A stretch of DNA of 9,034 bases from contig JACRGO010000105.1 in assembly GCA_016212295.1 (NCBI GenBank), positions 1 through 9,034 of the forward strand, in the 5' to 3' direction. Position 1 is the first letter of the stretch. Each line of letters begins with the position of its first letter. Of the stretch, positions 1-9,034 are shown one piece after another. Origin of the DNA: Nitrospinota bacterium (GTDB taxonomy: Bacteria; Nitrospinota; Nitrospinia; JACRGO01). A program made the translations under genes and the position numbers. A model generated the notes under the pieces. That model saw only the letters and a program-made list of their open reading frames with translations, did not search any database and was not told where the DNA came from.

Positions 1-127
1 ATTTGAAATTTCAAAAAGGCGGCAAAAAGTGAAACGTTTTATGGCAAAAAGAGATAAATTTTCGGAATAGGCGAGTAAGTATCTCCAACCGTGAAAAAAC
101 ATTGCGCCTTTTTTGAAAATTTCAAAT
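1..127. repeat. Imperfect inverted repeat at left window edge
   Basis: Bases 1-21 (ATTTGAAATTTCAAAAAGGCG) are the near-exact reverse complement of bases 105-127; aligning them needs only two single-base insertions in the homopolymer runs. The arms enclose about 83 bases of AT-rich DNA without a plausible gene. The left arm starts at the window edge and may continue outside. It could be the ends of a small non-autonomous element or a large hairpin; nothing here decides between these. Confidence 0.45.
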
Positions 128-264
128 ATTTTTGGCTAGATTTCAGATTGAAAGAATATAAAAAAACCTACCGCAAATCCAAAATCCAAAATCGTAAATC
201 TAAAATTGTTTTCATCGGCTTTTATTGGATTGTGATAGATGAATTCCCAATAAGCGGGTAAGTG
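128..264. other. AT-rich gene-free region downstream of def
   Basis: No plausible gene is visible. Bases 174-208 are a run of near-identical units of the form ATCCAAA / ATCGTAAA / ATCTAAA, resembling oligo-AT intergenic repeats common in environmental bacterial genomes (from memory, not searched). Bases 222-228 (TTATTGG) and 247-253 (CCAATAA) form a 7-base inverted repeat just past the def stop. It is AT-rich and lacks a convincing U-tract, so it is at best a weak terminator for the minus-strand operon. Confidence 0.4.
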
Positions 265-7982: not shown

Positions 7983-7997
7983 TTGGAAATTAACCTC

Positions 7998-8040
7998 AAC
8001 ACACCCCGGCCTTCGGCCACCCCTCTCAAGAGGGGAATTT
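7998..8040 (-). repeat. 43-base GC-rich repeat, copy 1 (inverted)
   Basis: Read on the minus strand it contains CCCCTCTTGAGAGGGG, a 7-base stem with a 2-base loop, then GTGGCCGAAGGCCGGGGTGTG. It differs from copy 2 at one base only. The sequence resembles a repeat I recall as widely dispersed in environmental bacterial genomes. The copy ends immediately upstream of the regulator gene's GAGG ribosome binding site. Confidence 0.8.
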
Positions 8041-8170
8041 ATAGGTGATGACGCCCTTTCGCTAGGGATTAATGAATAAGGCGCCGCTGTAAACCGTGAA
8101 AATCTCATAAAGGCGACTGGTAGAAATTGCTGGAAATTATAGCTCCGGCGATTAAGTTTTTTCCTTTGAA

Positions 8171-8213
8171 AAATTCCCCTCTTGAGAGGGGTGGCCGGAG
8201 GCCGGGGTGTGTT
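8171..8213 (+). repeat. 43-base GC-rich repeat, copy 2 (direct)
   Basis: This copy matches the reverse complement of 7998-8040 at 42 of 43 positions (GGCCGGAGGCC here, GGCCGAAGGCC there). With copy 1 it bounds a 216-base unit. I see no target-site duplication at the outer edges, so a simple transposon insertion of the pair is not supported. Confidence 0.8.
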
Positions 8214-8308
8214 AGCTGGCTTCTTATTACTACCACTTGCCGCTCATATTACCACAAAACACGAAACGCCACAAACCGTTATATGTTGATTTTACGGGCT
8301 TTTTTCTC

Positions 8309-8427: not shown

Positions 8428-8904
8428 ATGGGTCGAATGAAAGAATGGATGATGGAGCAACAAAATCGTATACAGGAACGGCACGATGAACTACCTGATC
8501 GAATCGATGATATGCTTTCATACCTTGGTGATATCGCAGAAAGGCTGGACAATGTTTTAGAGAAGTTCGATCCAGCAGATAGAAACAGGATATTTTTGAG
8601 TCACAAAAGCTGCGATAAGCCGATGGTTAGAAGGTTCATGTCTGCTCTGAGAGCAGTTGGGCTTGATCCATGGCTTGATGAAGATGAAATGACAGCAGGC
8701 TCACATCTCGACCAATCCTTACTGCAAGGTCTTAAGGAATCCTGTGCCACTGTCTTCTTCATTACACCCAACTTCCAGGATGCGGACTTCTTAAAACAGG
8801 AGATCGAGTATGCAATAGCAGAAGAAAGAGAAAGGACCGGGCGCTTCACCATTATTACTATTCTACTAAGCGGAGCCACAGAAGCAAATATACCGTCAGG
8901 GTGA
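8428..8904 (+). CDS. TIR-domain protein with N-terminal coiled coil
   Basis: Bacterial TIR proteins commonly cleave or process NAD+ in anti-phage defence or signalling. Here 158 residues comprise a charged heptad-like helix (about 5-47; ERHDELPDRIDDMLSYLGDI), probably for oligomerisation, and a TIR domain (53-158): RIFLSHKSCDK (54-64), PWLDEDEMTAGSHLD as the BB-loop region (81-95), VFFITPNF (109-116) and FLKQEIEYA. E125 is at the position of the catalytic glutamate, with F121 where W is usual. The protein stops about 17 residues after FTIITILL begins, shorter than many TIR domains, so a terminal helix may be missing. The ATG at 8428 has GAGGG six bases upstream (8417-8421). Arginine is AGA/AGG in 8 of 13 cases, which hints at transfer but is weak, since the DUF362 gene also uses AGG. 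NADase activity is inferred, not shown. Confidence 0.85.
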   Translation: MGRMKEWMMEQQNRIQERHDELPDRIDDMLSYLGDIAERLDNVLEKFDPADRNRIFLSHKSCDKPMVRRFMSALRAVGLDPWLDEDEMTAGSHLDQSLLQGLKESCATVFFITPNFQDADFLKQEIEYAIAEERERTGRFTIITILLSGATEANIPSG

Positions 8905-8955
8905 ATTTGTTCTTTTCCCTATCTCACTGATATATAAGAGAGAACCATCGACTCC

Positions 8956-8984
8956 TGGACATTGAACCGCGAATGGGGTATAGT
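8956..8984 (+). promoter_or_regulatory. Promoter for the gene at the right edge
   Basis: TGGACA (8956-8961), a 17-base spacer, and TATAGT (8979-8984): five of six matches in each hexamer at ideal spacing. It lies in the 113-base spacer after the TIR stop, so the next gene could be expressed independently of the TIR gene. Confidence 0.5.
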
Positions 8985-9017
8985 GTTCTTCATTAGCGTC
9001 TAATCTTGGAGGACAGT

Positions 9018-9034
9018 ATGGACATTAAACAAAT
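9018..9034 (+). CDS. Start of an unidentified gene, cut by the window edge
   Basis: ATG at 9018 follows a strong GGAGGA (9008-9013) with four intervening bases, and the frame reads MDIKQ before the window ends. With the promoter at 8956-8984 this is very likely a real gene start. The product cannot be inferred from five codons. It lies directly downstream of the TIR gene on the same strand. Confidence 0.55.

What the first reader, a model, noticed from the sequence alone, without database searches (positions are those of the whole stretch)
8428..9034. TIR-domain gene at the border of a possible defence region
A coiled coil plus TIR domain with the catalytic-position glutamate (E125) sits behind its own extended -10 promoter, followed by another gene start with its own promoter and strong ribosome binding site. 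TIR proteins are known NAD+-consuming effectors, often paired with a sensor gene. The preceding genes are all housekeeping or metabolic, so this looks like an accessory boundary. The partner is outside the window.
Basis: partly seen in the sequence, partly recalled or inferred. Interest (0 to 1): 0.6.

Follow-up and report, generated by a model that had tools for sequence, protein, structure and literature searches.

The report
TIR gene cut by transposon insertion

Summary
The TIR domain is real: Pfam TIR_2 gives E = 4e-17, and E125 is conserved in all six intact relatives and aligns with the corresponding glutamate of solved bacterial TIR proteins. The contig ends at 9034, and bases 8897-9034 are the left end of a multi-copy insertion sequence (IS). 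Twenty copies of this end lie in the genome, 18 identical over 136 bp, each beside unrelated flanks and nearly all at contig ends. Matching right ends exist, and ten insertions show perfect 10-bp target duplications. The IS starts inside the TIR codons, so the last two codons and the stop come from the IS. The protein keeps 156 of its own residues and lacks the conserved C-terminal ~35-40 residues that every intact relative has. The 'next gene with its own promoter and strong ribosome binding site' is most likely the IS transposase. Intact relatives are single genes without a shared neighbour. The missing 3' part was not found in the assembly. Verdict: a disrupted, probably horizontally acquired, stand-alone TIR gene. 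Ordinary.

The parts
8428..8896 (+). 5' part of a TIR-domain gene (156 complete own codons, to base 8895): helical N-terminus about residues 1-50, TIR domain from residue 54 to the break; E125 = codon 8800-8802
8897..9034 (+). left end (138 bp, cut by the end of the contig) of a multi-copy insertion sequence, terminal sequence CAGGGTGAATTTGTTC; supplies the codons S, G and the TGA stop (8902-8904) of the truncated TIR ORF
   Evidence: right ends; 10-bp target duplications of sister copies
9019..9034 (+). start of the presumed transposase (ATG GAC ATT AAA CAA AT..., GGAGG upstream); a sister copy continues MDIKQIFVRPAQRCEESRY
8887..8896 (+). expected 10-bp target duplication, left copy (AATATACCGT); the right copy was not found in the assembly

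Best explanation
The feature is a pseudogene: a stand-alone TIR-domain gene, probably horizontally acquired, interrupted by a recently active insertion sequence that makes 10-bp target duplications. The intact gene most likely worked like other prokaryotic TIR proteins: a variable N-terminal part senses infection or drives assembly, and the C-terminal TIR domain then cleaves NAD+ using E125. In this genome the insertion removes the last ~35-40 residues of the protein family's conserved TIR region (the last helix-strand-helix elements). The 158-residue product therefore most likely cannot fold into an active TIR, and the system is off. Shown by sequence: the TIR domain, the element boundary, the loss of the tail. 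Inferred: NAD+ cleavage, anti-phage role, loss of activity.
For: The last 138 bases match 19 other places in the genome. All begin at the same base (CAGGGTGAA) beside unrelated flanks, nearly all at contig ends, and 18 of the 20 are identical over 136 bp. Right ends with an imperfect inverted copy (CACGGTAAATTTGTTC) occur at about 26 places. Ten left/right pairs share exactly 10 bp of flank. Six intact relatives of 267-392 residues continue past the break with a conserved tail (about 35 residues, xxxP.LL..YVWK....A...I..ALP) that the window lacks. The structure model of an intact relative has two further helices after the strand at which the window protein ends (low confidence). No second fragment of the family lies in the genome. 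PMC7282519 states that all prokaryotic TIRs examined need the catalytic glutamate for NADase activity.
Against: The right-hand junction of this insertion and its target duplication were not found among 26 right flanks, so the insertion is read from one side only. The interior of the element is missing from the assembly and its family could not be named. The genome is a fragmented assembly (237 contigs), so a misjoin cannot be excluded from reads. Pfam's TIR_2 match also stops near position 93 of 122 in three of the four intact relatives scanned, so the partial Pfam match alone does not prove truncation.
Confidence: 0.85

Rival explanations
1. Functional short TIR protein: the 158-residue ORF, ended by the stop codon of the element, is still folded and active (for example as a component that assembles with others).
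For: The frame is open up to the break with no other stop or shift; E125 and the WLDED motif are kept.
Against: All six intact relatives keep a conserved tail of about 35-40 residues after the break point; losing it removes about a quarter of the domain. No relative that naturally ends at this point was found.
Confidence: 0.07
2. One reading: TIR effector at the left border of a defence island, with a sensor partner just to the right.
For: TIR proteins are known defence effectors; weak matches to Thoeris, CBASS-type SAVED-TIR and candidate models. The preceding genes are housekeeping or metabolic.
Against: What follows is an insertion sequence. Intact relatives have no common neighbour, one being the only such gene on a 3.5-kb plasmid. 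Relatives carry their own variable N-terminal parts.
Confidence: 0.04
3. Assembly artefact: TIR and element were joined wrongly in a fragmented assembly, and the gene is intact in the cell.
For: The contig ends inside a repeat; the right junction was not found.
Against: The join lies exactly at the base where the other 19 copies begin, as for a true insertion; ten sister copies are validated by target duplications. No intact copy or 3' part of the gene lies elsewhere in the genome.
Confidence: 0.04

Closest known systems
Stand-alone prokaryotic TIR-domain proteins (Pfam PF13676 TIR_2), e.g. WP_191212475.1 of a 3.5-kb Citrobacter plasmid and WP_193807454.1 of an Enterobacter asburiae plasmid
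   Same: TIR domain 43-55% identical over about 100 residues to intact relatives, same glutamate, single gene, often on plasmids or beside integrases
   Different: the window copy lacks the C-terminal ~35-40 residues and has only about 50 residues before the TIR domain, where relatives have about 130-220
PADLOC candidate PDC-S66 (single-gene phage defence candidate)
   Same: among the best-scoring candidate models for the relatives; the window matches profile positions 114-232 of 282, E 8e-12
   Different: only part of the profile matches, in the window and in the relatives, so membership is not shown
Thoeris ThsB / CBASS SAVED-TIR effectors
   Same: TIR domain with catalytic glutamate; weak profile matches
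   Different: no ThsA, SAVED or cyclase gene in the window or as a shared neighbour of the relatives; NCBIfam scores far below cut-off
Bacterial insertion sequences with 10-bp target duplications
   Same: short imperfect terminal inverted repeats, 10-bp duplications, one presumed transposase start just inside the left end
   Different: interior not assembled; family not assigned

Membership tests
Prokaryotic TIR-domain protein (PF13676) | profile match above the curated cut-off | tested here: met
   63.2 bits against 28
Prokaryotic TIR-domain protein (PF13676) | catalytic glutamate in the conserved helix position | tested here: met
   E125 aligned with the Glu of Cat1, BtTir and AbTir, 7 of 7 in the family
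Prokaryotic TIR-domain protein (PF13676) | complete domain including the C-terminal strand and helices | tested here: not met
   ends just before the conserved P.LL..YVWK tail
Prokaryotic TIR-domain protein (PF13676) | NAD+ cleavage | not testable with these tools
   needs an enzyme assay
Thoeris | ThsA partner next to the TIR gene | tested here: not met
   followed by an insertion sequence; no shared neighbour in relatives; NCBIfam ThcB4 29.7 bits against cut-off 220
CBASS with TIR-SAVED effector | SAVED domain fused to the TIR domain | tested here: inconclusive
   profile match covers the TIR part only (13-103 of 404); relatives scanned match the same TIR part only and show no SAVED match in Pfam; the window's own 3' part is missing
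PDC-S66 | match over the whole candidate profile | tested here: not met
   positions 114-232 of 282 only
Insertion sequence | several copies with the same ends at unrelated sites | tested here: met
   20 left ends, 26 matches for the right end
Insertion sequence | terminal inverted repeats and target duplication | tested here: met
   CAGGGTGAATTTGTTC / CACGGTAAATTTGTTC; 10-bp duplications in 10 pairs; for the copy in the TIR gene itself the right side is missing
Insertion sequence | transposase gene | tested here: inconclusive
   only an N-terminal (19 residues) and a C-terminal (36 residues) end are readable; no family match for the C-terminal end

The most novel reading that the evidence does not exclude
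The intact relatives form an undescribed stand-alone TIR defence family in which a conserved C-terminal TIR domain is joined to exchangeable N-terminal sensor parts (one resembling PADLOC candidate PDC-M14A) and travels on plasmids and beside integrases; the window holds an inactivated member.
Probability: 0.25. Interest if true: 0.35.

Novelty: new member of a known kind. Interest (0 to 1): 0.13.

Why it matters
It removes a false lead: there is no evidence for a defence island or a partner gene to look for here. It also shows how a contig end inside a repeat can make a cut gene look complete. If the loss is real, it is one example of a probable defence gene switched off by an IS burst in a genome rich in mobile elements.

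Tried and rejected
Looked for the 3' remainder of the gene by target duplication, by the YVWK motif in the right flanks and by profile: not found. Looked for the full element in 60 relatives, plasmids and viral contigs: none. Suspected a DruA-like transposase from the N-terminal letters: no PF14236 match in the genome. One search used a peptide extended from memory and is disregarded. Looked for an eroded longer N-terminus upstream of 8428: no match and stops in all frames. Searched for further close relatives in 397 other genomes of the Psychrobacter relative's phylum: none at E 1e-30. The P. savastanoi plasmid hit (H3) was left out of the alignments because it lies near a type III effector gene and was not needed.

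Full report
What is in the sequence. The ORF at 8428-8904 encodes a TIR domain (Pfam TIR_2, residues 55-148, E 4.2e-17). E125 lies in the helix after the third strand of the model and aligns with the corresponding glutamate of the solved bacterial TIR proteins Cat1, BtTir and AbTir. The promoter in front of the gene is no better than chance for the region. The seven preceding ORFs are ordinary: peptide deformylase, two 2-oxoacid:ferredoxin oxidoreductase subunits, LptE, DNA polymerase III delta, a DUF362 ferredoxin-type protein and a cyclic-nucleotide-binding regulator.

What follows is a transposon end. The window is contig C51 of a 3.74-Mb, 237-contig genome, and the contig ends at 9034. Bases 8897-9034 recur at 19 other places. 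In every case the match starts at CAGGGTGAATTTGTTC next to a different flank and nearly always runs into the end of a contig; 18 of the 20 copies are identical over 136 bp. Sampling contig ends gave the opposite end of the element on contig C55, reading CACGGTAAATTTGTTC from outside. A search with it gave 26 places. Ten left and right flanks pair by exactly 10 identical bases. With about 20 x 26 comparisons and 4^10 possible 10-mers, less than 0.001 such pairs are expected by chance (own estimate). The element is thus an insertion sequence with 10-bp target duplications and a presumed transposase starting at 9019 (MDIKQIFVRPAQRCEESRY in a sister copy), whose end (...LVFDYLRMTKNSCTLNGV, stop) is readable on C55.

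Consequence for the TIR gene. The element begins at 8897, inside the TIR reading frame: codons up to 8895 are the gene's own (156 residues), the last residues S and G and the TGA stop are the element's (codon 157 shares its first base with the gene). Six intact relatives (L051 Enterobacter asburiae plasmid, L052 Citrobacter plasmid, L120 Psychrobacter, L121 Phycisphaeraceae, L126 and L127 viral contigs) have 267-392 residues, are 43-55% identical over the TIR part, and continue past the break with a conserved tail of about 35-40 residues. Predicted models, of low confidence because only three sequences were aligned, end after the fourth strand in the window protein and show two more helices in the Psychrobacter relative; the latter model matches solved TIR proteins (SPARTA TIR-APAZ, SARM1, AbTir). 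The partial Pfam match alone is not proof, as three of four intact relatives also match only to about position 93. The near-identity of the IS copies and the otherwise unbroken frame suggest a recent event (inference). The 3' remainder was not found: no right flank begins AATATACCGT, and a profile of the family finds only this one place in the genome. Half of the left ends lack a found partner, so this absence is expected from the incomplete assembly (inference).

Partner and defence role. The ORFs within 6 kb of the six intact relatives share no detectable sequence similarity between loci. Recombinase/integrase-like genes lie close by in L051, L126 and L127 (annotated; read from the ORF translations), and L127 has a tRNA-His gene just before the TIR gene, which fits mobile elements. 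The N-terminal parts differ between relatives, apart from two similar pairs, L120/L127 and L051/L052; that of L121 matches PADLOC PDC-M14A. So the family looks like a single-gene TIR system with exchangeable N-terminal parts. Its defence role rests on similarity only. No relative at E 1e-10 was found in the class of the host, and one weak one at E 6e-9 in the same set of genomes, which fits horizontal acquisition.

Conclusion. TIR domain and E125: yes. Complete TIR gene with a second gene of its own system and a defence region beyond: no. The best account is a TIR gene cut by an insertion sequence. Confidence 0.85; the missing item is the right-hand junction.

Noticed in passing
window 7994-8234: A repeat of about 240 bp with 43-nt inverted arms (7998-8040 / 8171-8213, 98% complementary) lies between the cyclic-nucleotide-binding regulator gene and the TIR gene; similar sequence occurs at about 20 other places in the genome, like a small non-autonomous mobile element.
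   Followed up: partly
window 1-140: The left end of the contig is also a repeat shared with other contig ends (C12 right end, C82 left end), so the contig is bounded by repeats on both sides.
   Followed up: no
L054-L093 (contig ends): Contig ends of this genome fall into several different families of repeated ends, some with a start codon near the break, so the genome seems to carry many kinds of mobile elements.
   Followed up: no
L048:1531-4386 and L049:77-4015: Two other TIR_2-containing large proteins in the same genome, 951 aa (TIR at the N-terminus, then an ATPase-like part) and at least 1313 aa (ATPase-like parts on both sides of the TIR domain, cut by the contig end); both look like NLR-type architectures by eye.
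   Followed up: no
L121:7575-8753: Intact TIR relative whose first 137 residues match PADLOC PDC-M14A (E 3e-21), whose name suggests a separate protein of a multi-gene candidate system.
   Followed up: no
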